Assembly (NCBI GenBank): GCA_944323745.1
Contig: CALUTQ010000002.1
Span: 124,001-188,000 of the forward strand
Source of the DNA: Candidatus Avelusimicrobium pullarium
Lineage (GTDB): Bacteria; Elusimicrobiota; Elusimicrobia; Elusimicrobiales; Elusimicrobiaceae
Length of the DNA stretch: 64,000 bases
Direction: 5' to 3'
This document shows positions 32,709-44,280 of this stretch, in pieces (the stretch's first letter is position 1; each line of letters starts with the position of its first letter). Under the pieces are notes generated by a model. The model did not search any database, was not told where the DNA came from, and was given only the letters and a program-made list of their open reading frames with translations. The position numbers and the translations under genes are program-made.

Positions 32709-33794
32709 TTATCGTATTTTAAGCGACGCCAAAGCCAACAGCATCAGCATAGCGCCCATAATCCAAAAGCGGACAATAACTTTGGACTCCGGCACGCCGC
32801 ACAGCTCAAAATGGTGATGAATAGGCGCCATTTTAAACAGGCGTTTGCCGTGCGTGAGTTTAAAGTATCCCATTTGCAAAATGACAGACAGCGTTTCTAT
32901 CACAAAGATACCGCCGGCGATAGGCAGCAGCAGCTCCTGTTTTACAATAAGCGCCGCCGTACCCAGCACGCCGCCTAAAAACAGCGAGCTGGTGTCGCCC
33001 ATAAACACGCTGGCCGGATAGGCGTTAAACCACAAAAAGCCCAGGCACGCCCCGATAAGCGCACCCATAAAGACGGTAATTTCCCCCGCGCCGGGGACGT
33101 AGATAATTTTTAAATAATCGGCAAAGTTGACGTTGCCCGCCAGATAAGCAAGCACCGCATACGTTACCGCGGCAAACACCATACAGCCGCTGGCCAGTCC
33201 GTCCAAGCCGTCGGTCAAATTGGTGGCGTTGGAGGAACCGACAATGACCAACATAGAAAAGGCAAAATAGAACACGGATAAATCTACAAACGTTTTGCTG
33301 ACGTAAGGAATAATCAGCGACGTGGCATATTGTCCGTTGGGCGGGTTAAGCGCCAAATAACCCACCACCACAACCGCCGTAAAAAGCTGTATGGCCAATT
33401 TAACCGACGAGGACATTCCCTCCGGATTATGTTTAATCAGCTTAGTGTAATCGTCCAAAATGCCGGCAAAAGCCAAACACACGGTGGTAAAAAGCATCAG
33501 GCCGATATACGCGCTGTCCAGCCGGGCCCACAAAAGCACGCTGGCTAAAAGCGTAAGCAAAATAAGCAGGCCCCCCATCGTAGGCGTACCGTTTTTGGCC
33601 AGATGGGATGCCGGGCCGTATTCGCGCTCTATTTGCTGTATTTTAAAAGAACGCAGCTTTGCCACCAAAGAAGGCCCCAACAACAAAGAAAGCAAAAATG
33701 CCGTTACGATGGCGCCGCCGGTGCGAAAGGTAATGTAGTTGAAAATATTCAAAAAGCTTAGATCATCTTTAAATAAAGAAAGATAATACAGCAT
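32709..33794 (-). CDS. mraY: phospho-N-acetylmuramoyl-pentapeptide transferase MraY
   Basis: 361 residues, ten membrane helices. Signature sequences are present: KNGTPTMGGLLIL, LDDYTKLIKHNPEG, NLTDGLDGLASG and the PIHHHFELCG segment near the C-terminus. It joins UDP-MurNAc-pentapeptide to undecaprenyl phosphate to make lipid I. AAAGGAG lies 9 bases before the ATG and the murF stop is three bases upstream. Confidence 0.96.
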   Translation of the reverse strand: MLYYLSLFKDDLSFLNIFNYITFRTGGAIVTAFLLSLLLGPSLVAKLRSFKIQQIEREYGPASHLAKNGTPTMGGLLILLTLLASVLLWARLDSAYIGLMLFTTVCLAFAGILDDYTKLIKHNPEGMSSSVKLAIQLFTAVVVVGYLALNPPNGQYATSLIIPYVSKTFVDLSVFYFAFSMLVIVGSSNATNLTDGLDGLASGCMVFAAVTYAVLAYLAGNVNFADYLKIIYVPGAGEITVFMGALIGACLGFLWFNAYPASVFMGDTSSLFLGGVLGTAALIVKQELLLPIAGGIFVIETLSVILQMGYFKLTHGKRLFKMAPIHHHFELCGVPESKVIVRFWIMGAMLMLLALASLKIR

Positions 33795-33797
33795 AGA

Positions 33798-35147
33798 TTA
33801 AATCTCCTTTAGCAGGTTTTCAAACTGCATACCGCGCGAGGCTTTCAGCAGGCAGGTTCCCCCGCTTTTTTTAGCCAGCAGTTCTTTGAGTTCTTTGACC
33901 CAAGCTTGCGGCGTTACGCCATAAGCTACGGTGACGGACGTATCGTCCTTCAGCGCATCGGCGGCGTATTTCATTTCCGGGCCGGCCAAAAAGGCATAGT
34001 CCACTTTATTGTCCAGCAGCCAGCGGGCCACCAGTCGGTGATAATTCTTGGACGTTTCGCCCAATTCCTTCATATCCCCCAGCACGGCAATGCGCGGGGA
34101 ACCGGCTTCTTTGCCCAAAATTTCAAGCGCAGTTTGCATACTGGCAGGGTTGGCGTTATAGCAGTCCAAAATAAAATCGGTATCGCCTCTTTTAACGTGT
34201 TCCATACGCATAGGCATAGGAGTATAGGCCAAAAGACCTTTTTTAATTTCGTCCATAAAAAGCCCCAAAGCTATGGCGGCGGCACAAGCGGCGGCGGCGT
34301 TCAGTTTATCGTGGCGAAGCAGACGAACGTCAATGACATAAGCTTCGTTTTTATACGTAAACGAAAAATTGTCCGTATCCAAAATGCGCAAGTCCGCATT
34401 GGGCGAAAAACCGAAACTGATGCTTTTGCCTTTGTAGGCTTCCAGACGGCACAGGCGCTCATCGTCCACGTTATACACCAGCGTGCCGCCGGGCGCTATG
34501 CAGGAGACGATTTCCGTCTTGGTTTTATAGACGGTTTCCAAATCTTTAAAATATTCCAAATGCGCGGCCGACACATTGGTCAGCACCGCTACGTCCGGCA
34601 CGGCCAGGCTGGCAGTTTCGGCAATATCGCCGGGGTGGGATGCGCCCAGCTCAAAAACGCCGAATTGATGTTTGGGCTGAATTTCCAACAAAGAAAACGG
34701 CACCCCGAACTGATTATTAAAATTGCCCATATTGGCCACCGTTTCCCCCGCCTGCTGGCAGATGGATTTAAGCATCTGTTTGGTGGTGCTTTTGCCGTTG
34801 GAACCGGTAATGGCGGCCACCTTTAAGGTGCTGTTTAAACGGTGATATTTGGCCAAGGCTTGAAGGGCTTTTAAGGAGTCTTCCACTTCCAATACGTCTG
34901 TTTTGCCTATGATATCTGCCGGAATGCGGCCCTTTTCGCCCACAATAACGCTGGCGCCTTTTTTTACCACATCCGCTATGTAATTGTGCGCATCGTGATT
35001 GCGCCCTTTTAACGCCCAAAAAACATCGCCTTTAGCCAGCACGCGGCTGTCGGTTACAAAAGACTGAATTTTGCTCTGCGGGTCCCGGGCGTGCAGTGCA
35101 CCTCCGGTAATGGAAGCAAGTTTAGACAAAGTCAGATTTAATTTCAT
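33798..35147 (-). CDS. murF: UDP-MurNAc-tripeptide:D-Ala-D-Ala ligase MurF
   Basis: 449 residues. Mur ligase domains in order: N-terminal UDP-binding (VTDSRVLAKGDVFWAL), central ATP-binding with P-loop AITGSNGKSTTKQM and the NNQFGVPFSLLE element typical of MurF, and C-terminal domain with DCYNANPASMQTALE. It completes the pentapeptide precursor. A strong AAGGAG is seven bases before the ATG. murE, its usual upstream neighbour, is absent. Confidence 0.94.
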   Translation of the reverse strand: MKLNLTLSKLASITGGALHARDPQSKIQSFVTDSRVLAKGDVFWALKGRNHDAHNYIADVVKKGASVIVGEKGRIPADIIGKTDVLEVEDSLKALQALAKYHRLNSTLKVAAITGSNGKSTTKQMLKSICQQAGETVANMGNFNNQFGVPFSLLEIQPKHQFGVFELGASHPGDIAETASLAVPDVAVLTNVSAAHLEYFKDLETVYKTKTEIVSCIAPGGTLVYNVDDERLCRLEAYKGKSISFGFSPNADLRILDTDNFSFTYKNEAYVIDVRLLRHDKLNAAAACAAAIALGLFMDEIKKGLLAYTPMPMRMEHVKRGDTDFILDCYNANPASMQTALEILGKEAGSPRIAVLGDMKELGETSKNYHRLVARWLLDNKVDYAFLAGPEMKYAADALKDDTSVTVAYGVTPQAWVKELKELLAKKSGGTCLLKASRGMQFENLLKEI

Positions 35148-35180: not shown

Positions 35181-36890
35181 CTATTTTTGCACGGGCTGCA
35201 ATTCTTCCGGCCGGTCGGGCGCCACCCCGTCCATCGCCAGCAGCCCTTCGGCCACTTCTTTAAACACCGGTGCGGCCGCCGTGCCGCCAAAGGTGTATTT
35301 GGCCGGGTTGTCCAGTACAACTAAAATGGTAAAACGCGGGTCTTCCACCGGCGTAAACCCGCAAAAAGACACCACGTGGTGGCGCTTGGCGTAACCGCCT
35401 TCTTTGCTCAATTTTTCGGCGGTGCCCGTTTTGCCGGCTACGCTGTAGCCTTTTATTTGCGCTTTTTTGCCAGAGCCCTCTTTAACCACGTGTTCCAGCA
35501 CTTTTTTCATCGTTTCCACGGTTTCGGGCTTAAGCACACGGCGTATGCGCTGCACCTCGGCTTTATGGTCCACTCTTCCGTCGGCATATTCAATACGGTC
35601 CACCAAATGCGGCTGCATCAGCCAGCCGCCGTTAGCGATGGCGGAATAGGCCCCGATCAACTGCACCGGCGTGAGCGAAATGCCATAGCCGTACCCCTTG
35701 GTGGCCGTATCCACCACCGTCCATTTGTTATAAGGCGGCACATAGCCCTTGGACTCGCCGTTAAAATTAATGTCGGTCTTCGTGCCGAAGCCAAACGCTT
35801 TAATATAGTAAAAAAGATTTTTTGCCCCCAACTCAAGCGCTATTTTCCCCGCGCCGATGTTGGAAGAAACGGCCATAATTTCCGGAATGGTCAGTTCTTC
35901 TTTATCGTGCTGATTGTCCCGCACGACGACCCCGCGGGCAATTTCCCACTTGCGCCCGCTCATATCAATCGGGTCGTTGATGGATACGGCCCCCGCGTCC
36001 AATGCCGAAGAAATGGCAATGGTTTTAAACGTGGAGCCGGGCTCGTAGGTAAACTGAAACGGCAGCGACTGCCCGTCCTTGCGCGGATATGAAGCCGCCG
36101 CCAACAGTCTTCCCGTTTTAGGCTCCTGCACGACAATAAGGCCGTGTTCCGGTTCATAATCTTTGACGGCTTTTTCAAGGGCTTTTTCGGCATAGTACTG
36201 GGCCAAAATGTCAATGGTCAAATAGACGTTGCCCACGGAACGTTCTTCTTTCAAACTGCGGTCATAAATCAGTTCCCCGCGGCGGGCGCGTTTGGCGCGG
36301 CGTTTGCTGATTTCTTGGCTCAGCTCGCTGTTAAACATTTGCTCTATGCCCGAAAGACCCAAATTTTTAGAGTTCGCCGCCCCCAATATGTCTATGGCGC
36401 TGCTGCCATAGGGGTGCACGCGTTCATATTCCGGCGTTAAGTCCAGCCCTTGGCCGACGGAAGTTTTCATCGCGGGCAGCAAGTCCATATACGTATCCGG
36501 CTTTATTTTTTTGGCCACAAAGAAAAAATTTTTATTCCTTTGCCATTTGCGTTCTATGTCTTTTTTGGAAATATGCAAGACTTTGGCCAAAAAGGAAATC
36601 GTTTCATTTTTATTTTTCACATACCGTTTGCTGATACCGCAGGAATGGGTGCGCACCGATTCGGCCAAAAAGCGCCCCTTTACGTCGTAAATTTTGCCGC
36701 GCAGGCGGTCTTCGTCCAAATAATTGTAAATGGCCCGTTCGGCCTTGCTGGTAAATTCGTCGTGCTGGAAGGTTTGCATATAAAATAATTTCCCCGCGAT
36801 GCACAAAGGCGCCAACAGACAAAGCAGTCCGCACAGTTTCATACGGGCTTTGGTGTTGTAAATAAACGGGTTGTTTTTTTGTTTCAACAT
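35181..36890 (-). CDS. ftsI: penicillin-binding protein FtsI (class B transpeptidase)
   Basis: 569 residues. One N-terminal membrane helix (about 17-38), a pedestal domain, then the transpeptidase domain with SxxK in EPGSTFKTIA, SxN in AVSSNIGAGKIAL and KTG in SVAGKTGTAEKL. It cross-links septal peptidoglycan as the partner of FtsW. It starts directly after the ftsL stop codon. A Pro/Gln tail closes the protein; no PASTA domain is seen. Confidence 0.93.
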   Translation of the reverse strand: MLKQKNNPFIYNTKARMKLCGLLCLLAPLCIAGKLFYMQTFQHDEFTSKAERAIYNYLDEDRLRGKIYDVKGRFLAESVRTHSCGISKRYVKNKNETISFLAKVLHISKKDIERKWQRNKNFFFVAKKIKPDTYMDLLPAMKTSVGQGLDLTPEYERVHPYGSSAIDILGAANSKNLGLSGIEQMFNSELSQEISKRRAKRARRGELIYDRSLKEERSVGNVYLTIDILAQYYAEKALEKAVKDYEPEHGLIVVQEPKTGRLLAAASYPRKDGQSLPFQFTYEPGSTFKTIAISSALDAGAVSINDPIDMSGRKWEIARGVVVRDNQHDKEELTIPEIMAVSSNIGAGKIALELGAKNLFYYIKAFGFGTKTDINFNGESKGYVPPYNKWTVVDTATKGYGYGISLTPVQLIGAYSAIANGGWLMQPHLVDRIEYADGRVDHKAEVQRIRRVLKPETVETMKKVLEHVVKEGSGKKAQIKGYSVAGKTGTAEKLSKEGGYAKRHHVVSFCGFTPVEDPRFTILVVLDNPAKYTFGGTAAAPVFKEVAEGLLAMDGVAPDRPEELQPVQK

Positions 36891-37145
36891 TTAATCTTCC
36901 AGTATAATCACTTGCTGCGGCTGCGTGCGGCGCAAGTGCAGTTTTTCCTGCGCCAGCTGCTCAATGGTTTGCGGGCTTTCCAAACGGATAGCTTCCAGCT
37001 CTAAATATTGATTGCGCGCACGTTTTATTTCCACTTCGTTTTGCAGGCGGCCTATTTCGCGGCCGGAGCGATTGATTTCTATGTGCATCATCGCCACGCC
37101 AAAAGCAAACACGCTCAATGCAAAAACTAAACCGAATAATTTCAT
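36891..37145 (-). CDS. ftsL: FtsL-like cell division protein
   Basis: 84 residues from 37145 (MKLFGLVFALSVFAFGVAMM), whose ATG overlaps the rsmH stop (ATGA); the frame stays open 17 codons further but inside rsmH. One membrane helix, then a coiled coil (EIGRLQNEVEIKRARNQYLELEAIRLESP) and EQLAQEKLHLRR, the usual FtsL/FtsB layout. FtsL sequences are poorly conserved; the call rests on size, topology and place between rsmH and ftsI. It would link FtsQ and FtsB to FtsWI. Confidence 0.8.
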   Translation of the reverse strand: MKLFGLVFALSVFAFGVAMMHIEINRSGREIGRLQNEVEIKRARNQYLELEAIRLESPQTIEQLAQEKLHLRRTQPQQVIILED

Positions 37146-38020
37146 ATTCTTTCTATCACTCTTAATTTTGCGCTGCGGCTGCGCGGGTTTTGGCACACTT
37201 CCTGATAAGAAGGCGCCACCACGTGTTTATTGACCAAACGCCACTCGCCGCCGGCCGCCAATGCTTTAAAGCGGGTTTTGACCATTCGGTCTTCCAGCGA
37301 GTGGAAGGTAATGATCCCCGCCCTGCCGCCTGGCTTAACAATATGCTGCAGCACATCAAGCACGGTGCGCACACAGCCCAGTTCATCGTTTACCGCAATG
37401 CGCAACGCCTGAAAAGTTTGCGTAGCCGGATGAATTTTTCCGCGTCCTTTAACTACGCCTTCCACAATCTTTTTAAGCTGAAAGGTCGTTTCAATTTTAC
37501 CTTGCCGGCGTGCGGCCATAATGGCCATTGCGATGGCGTGGGCGTTTTTTTCTTCACCGAAATCCGTTAAAATACGCTCCAATTCCGCCAGCCCCCATTC
37601 GTTGACAATGGTGCAGGCGGTAAGCGGGGCCGCCAAATCAAAACGCATATCCAGCGGGCCGTCGCGCAGCAGGCTAAAGCCGCGGCGGGGGTTGTCCAGC
37701 TGATACGAGCTGAGCCCCAAGTCAAACAAAGCGCCGTCGGCACCGTCTATGCCGGCTTCTTTTAGCACCTGCGGGGCCTGCGTATAAGAGGCATACACCG
37801 CCGTTAAACGCGGGTCCTGCACATTTTGGCGGGCCATAGCCAAGGCTTCTTCGTCTTTATCAAACCCAAATAAGCGCGCAGAAGGCCCCAAACGGGCCAA
37901 AAAATAGCCGGCGTGGCCGCCAAGCCCCAGCGTGCCGTCCACATACACGCCGTTTAAATTGGTTAAAAGCAAGTCCGCCGCCTGTGCGGCCAAGACGGGG
38001 ATATGGGTCCACTGCGCCAT
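37142..38020 (-). CDS. rsmH: 16S rRNA (cytosine-1402-N4)-methyltransferase RsmH
   Basis: 292 residues. SAM site DGTLGLGGHAGYFLARLG, then FDKDEEALAMARQN, and the family motif ALFDLGLSSYQLDNPRRGFS; the C-terminal FHSLEDRMVKTRFK is diagnostic of RsmH/MraW. It methylates 16S rRNA in the decoding centre. In most bacteria it heads the division cluster after mraZ; no mraZ is present here. Its start overlaps the stop of the metallopeptidase gene (TAATG). Confidence 0.96.
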   Translation of the reverse strand: MAQWTHIPVLAAQAADLLLTNLNGVYVDGTLGLGGHAGYFLARLGPSARLFGFDKDEEALAMARQNVQDPRLTAVYASYTQAPQVLKEAGIDGADGALFDLGLSSYQLDNPRRGFSLLRDGPLDMRFDLAAPLTACTIVNEWGLAELERILTDFGEEKNAHAIAMAIMAARRQGKIETTFQLKKIVEGVVKGRGKIHPATQTFQALRIAVNDELGCVRTVLDVLQHIVKPGGRAGIITFHSLEDRMVKTRFKALAAGGEWRLVNKHVVAPSYQEVCQNPRSRSAKLRVIERI

Positions 38021-39330
38021 TAGAACCCCCCTCGGTAACTGTTGGTTTCCACCATTTGCAGCTTGGGAATGACCGTTTTTTGCGGGCCCTGCGGCTGACG
38101 CGCCGCTTGCCTGTTTTGGCTGCGCTGCGGCTGAGCCTGCGGCTTGCCCGTAGGCACGGCTATCGTCTGGGTAGAAGAAAGCACCGTGGCCGGAAGGTTC
38201 TTTTGATTTTGGAACAGATGTCCCTCAGAATGTTTGGCCAAATCGTGCAGCCACACATTTTGCAGTACAGATACTTTGGTAAACGGCATTCCGTAAGCGC
38301 GGTAAAGCGCCTGGTGGACGGGCGAGCCGGCTTTCAGTTCATTGCAAAAGCGGTAAAATTCGTCGCGGGTGCGTTCATTAAGCAAATAGTCCACCAAACT
38401 GTAGGCCTGCGTGTACCAAATTTCCGCCTGGGCGGAAGTTAAGGCGGACAAATCTTCCGTCTGCATCATATTTTCCAGCTCTATATACCGGCCCGACAAA
38501 ATGCTGCGCAGGCTGTTGTCTATCCAGCTGGGTTTTTGTTTGGTAGCGTGTATTTGCATATACACCGCCATCCCTTCCGAAAGCCACAGCGGCGAAATGG
38601 AAGGCAAAAAGTAGCCGTCAAAATACAAATGCGTCAATTCGTGCACGGAAAGCGGATAAAAATTGCGCCCTTCCAGCACATACATCGTGTCTGCCTTTAA
38701 GTCCGACGCGGCACCGGACCAAGGCGGACGCTTAGTAAAACCCATATAACTTTCTTTATCTTTAAAAAGCATTACCAAAATTTTGTTCGGTTTAGCCACC
38801 AGCGTAAAGGGCGTTAAGTCCAGCATCAAGTTGCCGTGTATAGTGTCCAGCACGGTTTTTAATTCTTCCCCTACGGGGTGGCTTTCGCGGTAAATTAAAT
38901 AGTTAAACGTTTCCGCCGTCAAAAAGCCCGGCGGGGGCGGCATCCAGCGCACTTTTTGCTGCGGGTTAGGCGCCGGACGAACCTGTGCCGGCACCCCTTG
39001 CACGGGGGCTTCTTTAGGCGGCACGGCCGCACCTACGCGCTCCAAACCGGCAATAAGCTCTTTAAACTCTTTTTCGGCCTCGGCACGCTGGGCTGGGGTT
39101 TCGGGTTGCTGTTCCTGAAAGAGTTCTTCAAAAATATGCGGGTCTATGGCTTCTTTTTTCAGGACATCGTCCGATTTGGCATCCCGCGTTTGCGACTCTT
39201 TTTTATCCACCATCAGCACTTTGCTGTAAACGGTTTTAACGTCAATGTCAAAATAACGCAGCACGGGCGGGGCTATCAAAATGACGCCCAATACCCACAA
39301 AAGATAGGTTATTTGTTTGACGATGTCCAT
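38020..39330 (-). CDS. membrane-anchored gluzincin-type metallopeptidase (peptidase MA-like)
   Basis: 436 residues. One N-terminal membrane helix (about 7-25), a Glu/Pro-rich linker, then a domain with zinc motif HELTH (230-234) and a downstream glutamate in WLSEGMAVYMQ (Glu252), the HExxH...E arrangement of gluzincins; the surrounding pattern resembles the MA-type/DUF1570 peptidases. The C-terminus is a Gln/Pro-rich basic tail. It should act on the outer face of the inner membrane. Substrate unknown. Its placement inside the division operon, coupled to rsmH, hints at a role in cell-envelope growth or division. Confidence 0.75.
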   Translation of the reverse strand: MDIVKQITYLLWVLGVILIAPPVLRYFDIDVKTVYSKVLMVDKKESQTRDAKSDDVLKKEAIDPHIFEELFQEQQPETPAQRAEAEKEFKELIAGLERVGAAVPPKEAPVQGVPAQVRPAPNPQQKVRWMPPPPGFLTAETFNYLIYRESHPVGEELKTVLDTIHGNLMLDLTPFTLVAKPNKILVMLFKDKESYMGFTKRPPWSGAASDLKADTMYVLEGRNFYPLSVHELTHLYFDGYFLPSISPLWLSEGMAVYMQIHATKQKPSWIDNSLRSILSGRYIELENMMQTEDLSALTSAQAEIWYTQAYSLVDYLLNERTRDEFYRFCNELKAGSPVHQALYRAYGMPFTKVSVLQNVWLHDLAKHSEGHLFQNQKNLPATVLSSTQTIAVPTGKPQAQPQRSQNRQAARQPQGPQKTVIPKLQMVETNSYRGGF

Positions 39331-39350: not shown

Positions 39351-39986
39351 TTATTTTTTAAACACAGCCAAGAAGCGGTCTTTGTTTTCCTGCGGCAGGC
39401 GATAGCTTTCAAACGACAAAGCCGTTAGCCCCAGCCGGTGCAGCAGCGCCGCTTCCGTTTGCGTTTGTGCGCTTTGATACGCGGCAAAAATTCCCCCCGC
39501 TTTCAGCGCAGGCGCCACCAGGGGCAATATATCGCTCAGTTGCCCCATAGCGCGCTCGGTTACAAAGTCAAAAGTCCCTGGGGACTTTTGACCCAAACGC
39601 ATACATATTACAGTAACATTTTTTAAGCTTAATTTTAATACCACCCAATTTAAAAAAGCACATCTTTTTTCTAAGCTTTCCACCAAACTCACTTTTGCCT
39701 GCGGCAACGCTATCGCCGCGGCAAGGCCGATGTATCCCGCTCCGCTGCCCATATCGGCAACGGTAAAAACGTCCTTATTTTCCGCACTGCGCTTAAAAAA
39801 GGCCGCACCGGCAAGGCCGTCGCAAATATGACGGGTAAAAATTTCCTCTTTATCGGCCACGCTGGTAAGATTTAAAAAATCTTTTTTCTGCCACACCAAG
39901 CCGGCATATTGCTCCAGCTGTTCCAATTGCGGCTGTGTTAGCGTCAAGCCCAAAGAAGCGGCAAACTCAGCCGTTTTGCTGTGCAT
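39351..39986 (-). CDS. rsmG: 16S rRNA (guanine-527-N7)-methyltransferase RsmG
   Basis: 211 residues. KDFLNLTSVADKEEIFTRHICDG and VADMGSGAGYIGLAAAIALP (SAM site) are the GidB pattern; VTERAMGQLSDIL also fits. It methylates G527 of 16S rRNA. Its start overlaps the end of mnmG by 20 bases. Confidence 0.92.
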   Translation of the reverse strand: MHSKTAEFAASLGLTLTQPQLEQLEQYAGLVWQKKDFLNLTSVADKEEIFTRHICDGLAGAAFFKRSAENKDVFTVADMGSGAGYIGLAAAIALPQAKVSLVESLEKRCAFLNWVVLKLSLKNVTVICMRLGQKSPGTFDFVTERAMGQLSDILPLVAPALKAGGIFAAYQSAQTQTEAALLHRLGLTALSFESYRLPQENKDRFLAVFKK

Positions 39987-41751
39987 TTTTCAGCCTCCGG
40001 TAGCGTTCTATGTGAATAGCCAGCAGCTGGATATCCGCCGGTGTTACGCCCGGTATGCGCGCGGCCTGCCCCAGCGTGCGGGGGCGGACGGTTTTAAGCT
40101 TTTGGCTGCTTTCTATTAAAATGCCTTTTACGGCAGAAGGGTCAAACCCTTCAGGGATGACGATATTTTCGGCCAGGGCCAGTTTTTCGGCGTCTTTTTT
40201 GTTGCGCTCATAATAACCGGCATACTTGTGGTACACCTCTACGTGAAAGCGCACCTTTTCGGCCGTCCACGGATACAGCTCCGTTTCGTCTATTACGTGC
40301 GTGGGGTCTGCTTTAAGCAGCTCCACCTGTTTTTGATAATTTTCAAACGCTTTTTTATATTTGGCGTCCAGCGTGCCCAAAGCAAAACCGTACGGGCACA
40401 GGCGCAGGTCTGCATTATCGTTACGCAACAAAATGCGGTATTCGGCGCGGGAGGTGAACATACGGTAAGGTTCGTTGACGCCTTTGGTAACCAAGTCGTC
40501 TATCAACACGCCGATATAGGCCTCGTCGCGGCGCAGGATAAACGGCTCCTGCCCGCGGGTTTTGCGCGCGGCATTGATGCCGGCCATAAAACCTTGTCCG
40601 CCGGCTTCTTCATAGCCGGTGGTACCGTTGATTTGCCCCGCGCAAAAAAGCCCCGGCACTATTTTGCTTTCCAGAGAGGCAAACAAGTCCATCGGGTCGG
40701 AAAAGTCATATTCAATGGCATAACCCGGGCGCGTGATGGAAGCATTTTCCAGCCCAGGGACGGACTTGAGCAAGGCCCGCTGTACGTCTTCGGGCATACT
40801 GGTAGAAAACCCCTGAATATAAAATTCCTCGGTATTCGTGCCTTCCGGCTCCAAAAAAAGCGGGTGACTTTTTACGTCCGGAAATTTTTTTGTTTTATCT
40901 TCCACCGACGGGCAGTACCGCGGCCCCAGGGCGTGTATTTTGCCGCTGTACATAGCGGAGCGGTTTAAATTTTCGCGCAGAATTTTGTCAGTCGCCTCGG
41001 TGGTGTGGGTAATATAGCAGCAAAGAAAATGACGTTTGGCCTGTTCTTTGGCGTCTGTAAAATGGGATATAGGCTGCAGGGGATCGTCGGAAGGCTGCAG
41101 GCGGAATTTGGAAAAATCAATTCCGCGCGCGTTGACGCGCATCGGCGTGCCCGTTTTAAAGCGGATAATATGCAGACCCAAAGCCTTTAACGATTTGGAC
41201 AGCTCATTGCTGGGCATATCGTTATAGCGCCCGCCGGGGAATACTTCTTCGCCGATGTGTATGGTTCCCCCCAAGAACGTGCCCGTAGTCAGCACTACGG
41301 TTTTGGCGCGGTAAAAGGTGTGGCGCAGGGTAATTACGCCGCTGACGGCGCCGTCGGCGGTGGTAATTTGCGCCGCCTCGTCCTGCATAATGTCCAAATT
41401 GTCCTGCCGCTCCAAGGTGTGTTTAAAATTGAACTGATAGGCTTTTTTGTCGCACTGCACGCGCGGGGAATGCACGGCGGGGCCTTTGCCGGTGTTGAGC
41501 ATATGGTAATGCACGGCGGCACTGTCGGTTACCAGCCCCATTGCGCCGCCCAACGCGTCAATTTCCCGCACGATTTGCCCTTTGGCAATACCGCCGATAG
41601 AAGGGTTGCACGACATTTGGGCAATCGTGTCCAAACTTTGGCTTAAAAGCAGGGTTTTGGCCCCTGTTTTGGCAGCAGCCAGTGCGGCTTCGCAGCCGGC
41701 GTGTCCGCCGCCGATAACGATTACGTCATATTCATTCGGATACTGATACAT
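39967..41751 (-). CDS. mnmG: tRNA uridine 5-carboxymethylaminomethyl modification enzyme MnmG
   Basis: 594 residues. FAD-binding VIVIGGGHAGCEAALAAAKTG at the N-terminus, then SCNPSIGGIAKGQIVREIDALGG and GTNTEEFYIQGFSTSMP, all classic GidA signatures. With MnmE it modifies the wobble uridine of several tRNAs. Follows mnmE by six bases. Confidence 0.97.
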   Translation of the reverse strand: MYQYPNEYDVIVIGGGHAGCEAALAAAKTGAKTLLLSQSLDTIAQMSCNPSIGGIAKGQIVREIDALGGAMGLVTDSAAVHYHMLNTGKGPAVHSPRVQCDKKAYQFNFKHTLERQDNLDIMQDEAAQITTADGAVSGVITLRHTFYRAKTVVLTTGTFLGGTIHIGEEVFPGGRYNDMPSNELSKSLKALGLHIIRFKTGTPMRVNARGIDFSKFRLQPSDDPLQPISHFTDAKEQAKRHFLCCYITHTTEATDKILRENLNRSAMYSGKIHALGPRYCPSVEDKTKKFPDVKSHPLFLEPEGTNTEEFYIQGFSTSMPEDVQRALLKSVPGLENASITRPGYAIEYDFSDPMDLFASLESKIVPGLFCAGQINGTTGYEEAGGQGFMAGINAARKTRGQEPFILRRDEAYIGVLIDDLVTKGVNEPYRMFTSRAEYRILLRNDNADLRLCPYGFALGTLDAKYKKAFENYQKQVELLKADPTHVIDETELYPWTAEKVRFHVEVYHKYAGYYERNKKDAEKLALAENIVIPEGFDPSAVKGILIESSQKLKTVRPRTLGQAARIPGVTPADIQLLAIHIERYRRLKNAQQNG

Positions 41752-41757
41752 TTACGT

Positions 41758-43116
41758 CTACTTCCCCATACAAAACTTGGAGAATATAATTCCCAGCACG
41801 TCATCGGGGGTTACTTCTCCGGCTAAATCTTTCAGCGCGTTCAGCGCGCCGCGTATGTGTTCGGCACACAGTTCCAAACCGGCCCCGTGTTCCAAACGTA
41901 CACAGGCGGACTCCACCTCCGTCTGTGCATTAAGCACCGCCTGATATTGCCGCAGGTTGGAAATCATTACGCCGTCTTCCCCCTGCGCCTGCGGTGCGGA
42001 AACAAAAGCTAAAATTTGTTTTTTTAAGTCGTCTAACCCTTCGCCTTTTTTGCACGAAACATACACCGTGTATTGCGCCTTGCCTTCCAGCGGGCAGCGG
42101 CCCTGCACGGCACAGTCGGTTTTGTTAAGCACCAGCACCACGGGCTTATTTGCTTTTTGTACGTCGTCCCACAAGGCTTCTTCCTGCGGGGTAAGCTCGC
42201 GCGAGAGATCTGCCACAAAAAGCACCACGTCGGCTTTTTCTATGGCGCGCAGGCTGCGCTTCATTCCTTCCTGTTCGGCAGGGTCCAGCGCGTGTTCGCG
42301 TATGCCGGCGGTATCGGTTAAAATAATTTTTTGTCCGTCCAAGTCCAGGCTTTCTTCCACCGTGTCGCGCGTGGTGCCGCTTTGGTCGGATACAATGGCC
42401 CGGTCAAACCCCACCAAAGCGTTAAGCAGGCTTGATTTGCCGCAGTTGGGTGCGCCCACAATGGCGGCTTTTAAGCCTTCTTTAATCAAACGCCCGACGG
42501 AAAACGTATCGGCCAGTTTGGCCAACACACCGGCTTGGGCCAACAAATCGTTTACGGTTTTTTGGATGTCCAGCGGGGGCATTTCTTCGTCCACGTCGTC
42601 CAGACGCACTTCCAGCTGGGCCAGCGTTTCGGCCAAGGCGGTTTTAACGCCGTTTAACTTGTGGCTTAAACGCCCGTCCAAAGAAGAAAGCGCCAAATCG
42701 TGCGCGGCTTTATTGCCCGAAGATATCAAATCGCACAGGCCTTGTGCTTCCAGCAAGTCCATTTTTCCGTTTAAAAAAGCCCGATAGGAAAATTCCCCCC
42801 TTTTGGCAGGCTCTGCACCGGCGGCACAAAGCACCTCCAGCAGGCGCCCGCGGATATAGGGAGAGCCGTGAATGGCAAATTCCACAATGTCTTCGCCCGT
42901 ATAGCTGTGCGGCGCGGGGAAGTAGGTTACCAAAGCTTCATCTAACACCGTTCCCCCGTCCATCAGACGGCAAAACACCTGCGTGCGCGGCGGAAATGTT
43001 TTGCCCGCAGCAGTGATTTTTTGCAATATGGGCAGGCTTTCGGGCCCGCTTAAACGAATAAGCGCAATAGCGCTTTGCCCCTGCGCGGTGGCCGGGGCGC
43101 AAATGGTGCTGGACAT
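41758..43116 (-). CDS. mnmE: tRNA modification GTPase MnmE
   Basis: 452 residues. N-terminal folate-binding domain, helical domain, inserted G domain with GAPNCGKSSLLNAL, DTAGIRE and NKTD, and the C-terminal FSKFCMGK carrying the catalytic cysteine region (usually FC[IV]GK). Partner of MnmG in wobble-uridine modification. It heads the 11-gene operon, with TAAAAT six bases before its ATG. Confidence 0.97.
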   Translation of the reverse strand: MSSTICAPATAQGQSAIALIRLSGPESLPILQKITAAGKTFPPRTQVFCRLMDGGTVLDEALVTYFPAPHSYTGEDIVEFAIHGSPYIRGRLLEVLCAAGAEPAKRGEFSYRAFLNGKMDLLEAQGLCDLISSGNKAAHDLALSSLDGRLSHKLNGVKTALAETLAQLEVRLDDVDEEMPPLDIQKTVNDLLAQAGVLAKLADTFSVGRLIKEGLKAAIVGAPNCGKSSLLNALVGFDRAIVSDQSGTTRDTVEESLDLDGQKIILTDTAGIREHALDPAEQEGMKRSLRAIEKADVVLFVADLSRELTPQEEALWDDVQKANKPVVLVLNKTDCAVQGRCPLEGKAQYTVYVSCKKGEGLDDLKKQILAFVSAPQAQGEDGVMISNLRQYQAVLNAQTEVESACVRLEHGAGLELCAEHIRGALNALKDLAGEVTPDDVLGIIFSKFCMGK

Positions 43117-43183: not shown

Positions 43184-43217
43184 TTGACAGCCCCCTTTTC
43201 TTCATTTAAACTATAAT
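43184..43217 (+). promoter_or_regulatory. promoter of the ChaN-like gene
   Basis: TTGACA (43184-43189), 17-base spacer, TAAACT (43207-43212) overlapping a TATAAT (43212-43217). Start codon at 43231. Confidence 0.65.
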
Positions 43218-43230
43218 GACGGGGTGTATT

Positions 43231-44280
43231 ATGAAAAAATGTTTTTTAACCCTTTTTCTGCTGCTTTGTGCCCTATGTCAGGCCGCCGCGGCAACGGCCG
43301 CGGAAGAAAGCGCGGAATATAAATATTTCTTTTTCCCGCTGGCGCATTTATGGGAGCAGGACCCGCAAATGCAACCGCTGCTGCTGGAGGGCACCCGCCC
43401 TTTGACGGAAAATTTTGATTATACCGCCCTGTTTGGCGACGCGCAGGTAATACTGCTGGGCGAAATTCACGATAAAGACGTAATCAGCCGGGAAATTAAC
43501 GTTATTTTAAAACAGGCCGCGGGCAAGCCTTCGCTGGGGTTTACCCATCTGGCGACGGAGTTTTTGCTGCAGTCGGCCCAGCCGAATTTTGAAAAAGTCA
43601 AAAATAAAAATATCCATTTAGACAAGCTCAGCCAGGCCATAGATTCCCGTGTTATTTCCTACGATAACGCACTGCTGACAATGAAAATGGCCGAAGATTT
43701 GGGTCTGCAAGTGGTAGGGCTGGACATAGACCGCATTTTAACCCCCGGCGGTACCGCTTGGGCTTTGAGCGAGGAAGGCTTAAAAACCCGCAATCAGGCC
43801 TGGCTAAAAAAAATAACGGATGTGCTCCGCCAAAACCCCCGTGCACGCCTGCTGGTGCATTGCGGGGCGTTGCACAGCCAGTATGTGGCTGATTCGTTAA
43901 GCACCTTGCTTAAACGCAAAGGCATAAAGACGTATGTGATGCTGTTTGAAATCGGCCCCGACCCGAAAGCCGACAAGCATATGACCTGCGAATTTTTCCG
44001 CAGTCTTAATACGCCGCCCGTCTATGTTTGGTACCGTTTTTTCTGCCAGTTTGGCAAAGAAAGAGACAATTTGATTATTCGGGTGCCGCCCCGTTACGTT
44101 AACGTATTGGGGGCAGACAGCATCGTCTACTTTGGCAACCCCAACCCGATGAGCAAAATGAACCCGCAAGCCAAGGACGACTTGTTTAACGATATGCGCT
44201 ATTTTCCGCAGACGGCCTGCCACTTGCATCCGGACTCGGCAGCCTGCCAAAAGCTGCGGCATTGGTCTTTTGTAAAATAA
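43231..44280 (+). CDS. secreted ChaN/Tiki-superfamily protein
   Basis: 349 residues from 43231 (MKKCFLTLFLLLCALCQAAAA), giving a signal peptide; an ATG five codons upstream overlaps the promoter. The first core motif VILLGEIHDKDVISREIN matches the LGExHD element of the ChaN/TraB/Tiki fold, with LATEFLLQ and a later LLVHCGALHSQYVADSLSTLL (the second His region). ChaN-like proteins bind haem, while other Tiki members are proteases; which applies here cannot be read. No lipobox is evident. Monocistronic with its own promoter and terminator. Confidence 0.65.
   Translation: MKKCFLTLFLLLCALCQAAAATAAEESAEYKYFFFPLAHLWEQDPQMQPLLLEGTRPLTENFDYTALFGDAQVILLGEIHDKDVISREINVILKQAAGKPSLGFTHLATEFLLQSAQPNFEKVKNKNIHLDKLSQAIDSRVISYDNALLTMKMAEDLGLQVVGLDIDRILTPGGTAWALSEEGLKTRNQAWLKKITDVLRQNPRARLLVHCGALHSQYVADSLSTLLKRKGIKTYVMLFEIGPDPKADKHMTCEFFRSLNTPPVYVWYRFFCQFGKERDNLIIRVPPRYVNVLGADSIVYFGNPNPMSKMNPQAKDDLFNDMRYFPQTACHLHPDSAACQKLRHWSFVK

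What the first reader, a model, noticed from the sequence alone, without database searches (positions are those of the whole stretch)
38020..39330. Membrane-bound HExxH metallopeptidase embedded in the division operon
Its stop overlaps the rsmH start and it lies between rsmG and rsmH, so its level is tied to division genes. It has an intact HELTH...E zinc site and a single membrane anchor facing the periplasm. No dcw cluster I know has a peptidase here.
Basis: partly seen in the sequence, partly recalled or inferred. Interest (0 to 1): 0.5.

Follow-up and report, generated by a model that had tools for sequence, protein, structure and literature searches.

The report
Membrane-anchored metallopeptidase gene beside division operon
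A predicted membrane-anchored zinc peptidase gene sits beside the cell-division genes in a large group of Elusimicrobia, and in a mostly gut-dwelling branch it became physically joined to them where the usual first gene of that operon, mraZ, is missing.

Summary
Window 38020-39330(-) encodes 436 aa: one N-terminal helix, a low-confidence linker, an intact gluzincin domain (HELTH...E) and a low-confidence tail. Its stop shares one base with the rsmH ATG, and its last codons contain the rsmH Shine-Dalgarno-like stretch.
It is not a chance insertion: 85 of 86 genomes of four families of its class have an ortholog. Of 80 loci chosen by protein similarity, 72 have rsmG upstream and rsmH downstream; the other 8 show one side and end at a contig edge.
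"Embedded in the division operon" looks like a derived state. In mraZ-bearing relatives a promoter-like site precedes mraZ, downstream of the peptidase (25 of 26 loci), so the gene lies just outside the dcw unit. A branch without detectable MraZ (0 of 16 genomes) has the peptidase directly against rsmH.
Nearest solved folds are M9 collagenase peptidase domains (Z 16.9); it matches Pfam Peptidase_MA_2.
Best reading: a periplasm-facing, membrane-anchored metallo-endopeptidase acting on envelope proteins. Orientation, activity and substrate are inferred; a division role is plausible but unproven.

The parts
38020..39330 (-). membrane-anchored gluzincin metallopeptidase gene (436 aa)
   Evidence: PF13485 35.1 bits, cut-off 32.4
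39253..39324 (-). N-terminal helix taken as membrane anchor, residues 3-26
   Evidence: AlphaFold2 helix 3-26, first three ten-residue blocks at pLDDT 89, 93, 83; dN 0.07-0.28 in residues 1-30
38947..39240 (-). fast-evolving, low-confidence linker, residues 31-128
   Evidence: ten-residue blocks at pLDDT 34-71 (helices 31-38, 64-70, 79-101 are modelled there); dN 0.28-0.65
38215..38946 (-). gluzincin peptidase domain, about residues 129-372
   Evidence: blocks from residue 131 at pLDDT 76-95; M9 collagenase peptidase domains Z 14.1-16.9
38575..38643 (-). zinc site, residues 230-252 (HELTH, 17 residues, E)
   Evidence: H230, E231, H234, E252 invariant in 26 of 26 and 38 of 38 aligned sequences; motif in 77 of 78 ORFs
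38020..38079 (-). C-terminal block KTVIPKLQMVETNSYRGGF and stop; the RGG codons contain GAGGGGGG, the Shine-Dalgarno-like stretch of rsmH
37142..38020 (-). rsmH, sharing one base with the peptidase stop
39351..39986 (-). rsmG, upstream neighbour
35181..37196 (-). ftsL/DivIC-like gene (36891-37196) and ftsI (35181-36890)
32709..35147 (-). murF (33798-35147) and mraY (32709-33794)
39967..43116 (-). mnmE (41758-43116) and mnmG (39967-41751)

Best explanation
The gene encodes an inner-membrane-anchored, periplasm-facing zinc endopeptidase of the gluzincin (Peptidase_MA_2) type. A signal-anchor holds it in the membrane, a flexible linker of about 100 residues carries the catalytic domain into the periplasm, and the enzyme cuts envelope proteins. 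Shown by calls: family match and fold resemblance, intact zinc site, low dN in the domain, a predicted N-terminal helix, the shared position between the rsmG side and the (mraZ-)rsmH side, absence of detectable MraZ in one branch, and direct contact with rsmH there. Inferred: that mraZ was lost (parsimony, because relatives in three other families and two genera of the same family have it), membrane orientation, catalytic activity, protein rather than peptidoglycan substrates, and co-transcription and translational coupling with rsmH-ftsL-ftsI in the mraZ-less branch. Weakest step: that the substrate is a division or wall-synthesis protein (about 0.35).
For: PF13485 above its curated cut-off (35.1 against 32.4) and matched by 38 of 38 orthologs at E<=0.01. 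Fold: collagenase peptidase domains, Z 14.1-16.9 (best: rmsd 2.9 over 220 residues), lugdulysin 14.9, then TFIID and M1 rows at 12.4 and below. Zinc ligands invariant and in 77 of 78 ORFs. No G-x-M-E-N motif in 78 of 78, which argues against an M1-type aminopeptidase. Synteny 72 of 80 on both sides, 8 of 80 on one side at a contig edge; ortholog at E<=4.6e-49 in 85 of 86 genomes of families f1, f2, f7, f8. MraZ: 0 of 16 genomes of genera g1, g11, g12, g13, found in 4 of 4 of G149, G153, G025, G136. Promoter-like site before mraZ in relatives. No site of at least 10 of 12 from mnmE to rsmH in the window and in 8 of 12 mraZ-less loci. Overlap and embedded Shine-Dalgarno-like stretch.
Against: No substrate, expression or phenotype data. 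Shared fold shows no function; Foldseek's TM-score on the whole model is 0.41 at best rank and a profile search of solved-structure sequences found no significant relative. In mraZ-bearing relatives the gene appears to lie outside the dcw unit, which weakens the division link. Four of 12 mraZ-less loci (L050, L052, L053, L054) have 10-of-12 promoter-like sites inside mnmE, mnmG or rsmG, and the window has two 9-of-12 sites at the start of the peptidase gene (39329 and 39279; 7 sites found in the region, 5.0 expected by chance), so one long transcript is not certain. Only sigma-70-type sites were scanned. One of 41 relatives (G014, 83% complete) shows only an N-terminal fragment of the ortholog.
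Confidence: 0.7

Rival explanations
1. Neighbour by inertia: a general envelope protease that belongs to the mnmE-mnmG-rsmG side and has no division role. It touches rsmH only because mraZ and its promoter were deleted during genome reduction.
For: Promoter-like site between peptidase and mraZ in relatives; in L086 the peptidase stays near rsmG and mraZ is 5.4 kb away; in 19 of 55 loci searched, all mraZ-bearing families, a 170-aa membrane protein lies between rsmG and the peptidase; genomes of the mraZ-less genera are listed at 1.1-1.8 Mb against 1.6-4.6 Mb for f2, f7 and f8.
Against: The position is kept in all four families, reduced genomes included, and in the mraZ-less branch stop and start overlap in 51 of 65 loci where an rsmH start could be assigned (13 of 78 could not).
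Confidence: 0.5
2. A division protease: it processes or turns over a periplasmic division protein (FtsI, FtsL or a regulator), timed by co-expression.
For: Overlap with rsmH and the rsmH-ftsL-ftsI order; anchor helix and long linker; C-terminal motif conserved in 43 of 78 ORFs.
Against: Outside the dcw unit in mraZ-bearing relatives; no substrate evidence; the C-terminal motif is missing from several clades.
Confidence: 0.35
3. A peptidoglycan hydrolase acting on wall cross-links.
For: Location beside wall-synthesis genes.
Against: Gluzincin fold, closest to protein endopeptidases. Zinc peptidoglycan endopeptidases known to me belong to other folds (M23, M15, M74; recalled).
Confidence: 0.06
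4. A catalytically dead pseudopeptidase kept as a scaffold.
For: None found.
Against: HE..H with the downstream glutamate is kept in 77 of 78 ORFs; the exception, L173, has an unread base in the motif.
Confidence: 0.03

Closest known systems
Pfam PF13485 Peptidase_MA_2 (gluzincin superfamily)
   Same: HExxH plus downstream glutamate; above the curated cut-off; 38 of 38 aligned orthologs match at E<=0.01
   Different: Its own conserved blocks (P-x-W-S in 78 of 78, P-x-W-x-S-E-G-x-A-x-x-x-Q in 77 of 78), an anchor helix, and a fixed position beside rsmG and (mraZ-)rsmH
M9 bacterial collagenase peptidase domain (ColG, ColH, ColT, Vibrio and Grimontia collagenases)
   Same: Fold of the catalytic domain, Z 14.1-16.9
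   Different: No Pfam M9 match for the window protein, 12-14% identity, only about 128 residues before the domain, so no room for the activator domain (recalled)
M30 lugdulysin (7bb8, 7bb9)
   Same: Catalytic fold, Z 14.9
   Different: 12% identity; sequence membership not settled
M1 aminopeptidases
   Same: Gluzincin fold, Z about 11-12; weak PF01433 match below its cut-off
   Different: No G-x-M-E-N exopeptidase motif in 78 of 78 (motif recalled)
Canonical 17-gene dcw cluster
   Same: rsmH-ftsL-ftsI-murF-mraY order
   Different: A peptidase directly precedes rsmH where mraZ is missing; PMC8871954 (passages seen) names 17 genes without a peptidase and proposes 'likely no gene gain'

Membership tests
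Peptidase_MA_2 (PF13485) | score above curated cut-off | tested here: met
   35.1 bits against 32.4
Peptidase_MA_2 (PF13485) | HExxH and downstream Glu ligand | tested here: met
   invariant in 26 of 26 and 38 of 38; 77 of 78 ORFs
M9 collagenase (PF01752) | sequence match to the family | tested here: not met
   not listed for the window protein up to E 10, where HMMER's filters drop most weak matches; 1 of 38 relatives at E 0.007
M9 collagenase | peptidase-domain fold | tested here: met
   Z 16.9, rmsd 2.9, 220 aligned; a shared fold, not function
M9 collagenase | N-terminal activator domain (recalled) | tested here: not met
   only about 128 residues precede the domain: helix 3-26 and a stretch at pLDDT 34-71 with helices 31-38, 64-70, 79-101
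M1 aminopeptidase | G-x-M-E-N motif (recalled) | tested here: not met
   absent in 78 of 78 ORFs
M1 aminopeptidase | PF01433 above cut-off | tested here: not met
   16.8 bits against 27.7
M30 (lugdulysin-like) | sequence membership | tested here: inconclusive
   fold Z 14.9; no M30 model among the few families listed for the window protein
dcw operon member | same transcription unit as rsmH-ftsL-ftsI | tested here: inconclusive
   contiguous or overlapping in the mraZ-less branch; separated by a promoter-like site in mraZ-bearing relatives; no RNA data
active zinc peptidase | hydrolysis of a protein | not testable with these tools
   needs purified protein

The most novel reading that the evidence does not exclude
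Elusimicrobia have a lineage-specific divisome-linked metalloprotease. After loss of MraZ, the usual dcw regulator, a mostly gut-dwelling branch put rsmH-ftsL-ftsI under the transcription and translation of this protease gene, so that the protease reading frame became the new leader gene of the division operon. This would be a gene gain in a cluster described as having had likely none.
Probability: 0.25. Interest if true: 0.65.

Novelty: new variant of a known kind. Interest (0 to 1): 0.42.

Why it matters
[quoted passage not shown] Here a peptidase gene that lies just outside the cluster in relatives directly precedes rsmH where mraZ and its promoter-like site are missing. That is a testable case of operon rewiring, and it points to a conserved, uncharacterised envelope protease candidate.

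Tried and rejected
Chance insertion: rejected by synteny. Chance ORF: rejected by conservation and low dN. M1-type aminopeptidase: rejected on the missing motif. Conserved C-terminal GGF as a protein signal: set aside, because those codons contain the rsmH Shine-Dalgarno-like stretch. The preceding T-x-I-x-K-L-x-x-V block looks constrained as protein, since invariant residues use several codons; its role is unknown, and a search of the own genome found only the peptidase itself (24-residue query, low sensitivity).

Outside the phylum: 80 of 185 confirmed relatives were kept by the tool. Those 80 are Elusimicrobiota by record title or, where the title says only 'uncultured bacterium', by the same neighbours; the other 105 were not shown, so occurrence elsewhere is not excluded. 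In 20 rsmH loci from genomes lacking a clear ortholog, no ORF matched the peptidase profile and no rsmG match was seen; rsmG was sought with one query at E 1e-4, so a diverged copy could be missed, and L088 is cut by its contig end. Of the 23 genomes asked for rsmH, G049 gave no match, and G055 and G188 were not fetched.

Sequence searches of solved structures gave nothing significant (best E 0.59; with the profile, best E 0.15). NCBIfam gave only a chance-level match (11.3 bits against 205). TGGG pairs that might be MraZ sites were seen in 8 of 26 testable loci; no control was run, so nothing is claimed from them. My first zinc-motif pattern was too strict (22 of 78) and was corrected (77 of 78); the W-Y pattern missed 12 of 78, while Y306 is invariant in both alignments. 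M48 peptidases are present in 6 of 6 genomes tested and a second Peptidase_MA_2-like protein lies in the own genome, so this is not the only candidate of its kind there. The loci behind the promoter and overlap counts are related species, not independent events.

Full report
What is there. The ORF at 38020-39330 on the minus strand is 436 aa with an ATG start, 20 bases after rsmG, and its TAA stop shares one base with the rsmH ATG. Neighbours by profile: mnmE, mnmG, rsmG, then rsmH, a DivIC/FtsL-like protein (23.8 bits, below its 28.9 cut-off, so named mainly by place), ftsI, murF and mraY. The protein matches PF13485 Peptidase_MA_2 above its cut-off (35.1 against 32.4 bits).

Anatomy. AlphaFold2 on a 38-sequence alignment gives helix 3-26, a low-confidence stretch to about residue 130 (pLDDT 34-71, with helices 31-38, 64-70 and 79-101), a confident domain to about 370, and a low-confidence tail. 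Re-aligned Foldseek hits place the domain closest to collagenase peptidase domains (Z 14.1-16.9; best rmsd 2.9 over 220 residues), then lugdulysin M30 (14.9), TFIID (12.4) and M1 enzymes (12.3 and below); Foldseek's own TM-score for the top hit is 0.41 over the whole model. H230, E231, H234 and E252 are invariant in 26 of 26 and 38 of 38 aligned sequences, and the motif is present in 77 of 78 ORFs; the exception has an unread base. Y306 is invariant and may be the transition-state tyrosine (inference; role recalled for gluzincins). The M1 G-x-M-E-N motif is absent in 78 of 78. Pairwise dN is 0.09-0.19 in the domain and 0.28-0.65 in the linker in 12 comparisons; dS is 0.88-1.75 or saturated in the domain.

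Orientation. Many of the 74 N-termini printed have K or R just before the helix, and a few (L141, L142, L149) look like cleavable signal peptides. I infer a periplasmic domain; no predictor was run and no count was made.

Distribution. In a search of 198 genomes of the phylum, 85 of 86 genomes of families f1, f2, f7 and f8 have a match at E 4.6e-49 or better. The exception, G153, has an rsmH contig that begins in what looks like the peptidase's Q/P-rich tail. Among 41 closer relatives, G014 shows only an N-terminal fragment. In the other class families (9 genomes) the best match is 4.3e-26, and outside the class the best listed is 1.6e-28; four such weaker matches that I scanned are themselves PF13485 proteins. 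In a second collection the tool kept 80 of 185 confirmed relatives; one is titled Candidatus Avelusimicrobium.

Synteny. Of those 80 loci, chosen by protein similarity, 72 have rsmG upstream and rsmH downstream on the same strand; the other 8 have one side and end at a contig edge. The whole-genome loci agree. In L086 the peptidase remains near rsmG and mraZ lies 5.4 kb away.

How the contact arose. mraZ lies between peptidase and rsmH in 26 loci examined from f2, f7, f8, genera g14 and g15 of f1, and named records. MraZ was found in 0 of 16 genomes of g1, g11, g12 and g13 and in 4 of 4 of G149, G153, G025 and G136. Most records of the mraZ-less branch come from animal guts by their titles, but g13 (isolate SI047_bin93, L178) may not. 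In the mraZ-bearing loci the 150 nt before mraZ hold a sigma-70-like site of at least 10 of 12 in 25 of 26 (11 of 12 in 20), against 83 and 0 of 12,612 random same-strand stretches of the same loci; the miss, L088, has its site 178 nt upstream. In L187 the peptidase ends 34 nt before mraZ, so its site reaches into the peptidase gene. So in those organisms the dcw unit appears to start after, or at the very end of, the peptidase. In the window and in 8 of 12 mraZ-less loci no 10-of-12 site was found from mnmE to rsmH; the other four have such sites inside mnmE, mnmG or rsmG, and the window has two 9-of-12 sites at the start of the peptidase gene, in a region where the total found is near chance (7 against 5.0, sd 2.1). 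In the mraZ-less branch stop and start overlap in 51 of 65 loci with an assignable rsmH start, and 63 of 65 carry a purine-rich Shine-Dalgarno-like stretch; my script took the earliest fitting start codon, so exact overlaps may be off by a few bases. In the window's genus the frequent C-terminal GGF codons contain that stretch read in frame.

The tail. Just before it, T-x-I-x-K-L-x-x-V is kept in 43 of 78 ORFs with several codons per invariant residue, so it looks constrained as protein. It is absent from other sub-clades.

Function. I commit to a periplasm-facing, membrane-anchored metallo-endopeptidase acting on envelope proteins. Whether it serves division is open: the contact with rsmH favours it; the promoter-like site in relatives and the rsmG-side affinity in L086 favour inertia. 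M48 peptidases are also present in 6 of 6 genomes tested.

Known work. PMC8871954 (passages seen) describes a 17-gene dcw cluster without a peptidase and proposes likely no gene gain. Searches on Elusimicrobia with metallopeptidase or peptidase, on dcw with metalloprotease, on Peptidase MA, on mraZ/rsmG/rsmH with peptidase, and on Elusimicrobium minutum and Avelusimicrobium showed no title or abstract start describing this gene (listings only, several of them capped).

Noticed in passing
G000 and 15 other genomes of genera g1, g11, g12, g13: MraZ, the usual dcw regulator, was not found in any of these 16 genomes but in 4 of 4 others tested.
   Followed up: yes
L062:5418-5930: A 170-aa membrane protein without a Pfam match lies between rsmG and the peptidase; similar sequences in 18 further loci of the 55 searched, none in the f1 loci among them.
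   Followed up: partly
L062:2089-2856: A 255-aa hydrophobic ORF lies between mnmE and mnmG in an f2 relative; in the window these two genes are 6 bases apart.
   Followed up: no
38050-38076: The C-terminal motif T-x-I-x-K-L-x-x-V after a Q/P-rich stretch is conserved in 43 of 78 ORFs; role unknown.
   Followed up: partly
L088:1-220: The contig of G153 begins with a Q/P-rich tail containing IPRLKNVLTFF, resembling the peptidase tail, upstream of mraZ; a catalytic part would lie beyond the contig end.
   Followed up: partly
L084:3649-5331 (G000:C2:318149 region): A second, longer protein of the own genome matches DUF2268 above its cut-off and Peptidase_MA_2 just below it as scanned.
   Followed up: partly
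37142-37196: rsmH and the ftsL-like ORF overlap by 55 bases as called from the first start codon.
   Followed up: no
L086: About 5.4 kb separate the peptidase from mraZ in this f2 genome (G029), the one split block seen.
   Followed up: partly
L173: The peptidase frame is interrupted around an unread base in the zinc motif, probably an assembly fault.
   Followed up: no
43216-44280 (+): A divergent ORF upstream of mnmE with a leader-like N-terminus and an LGEIHD motif; ChaN/TIKI-like by recall, not tested.
   Followed up: no
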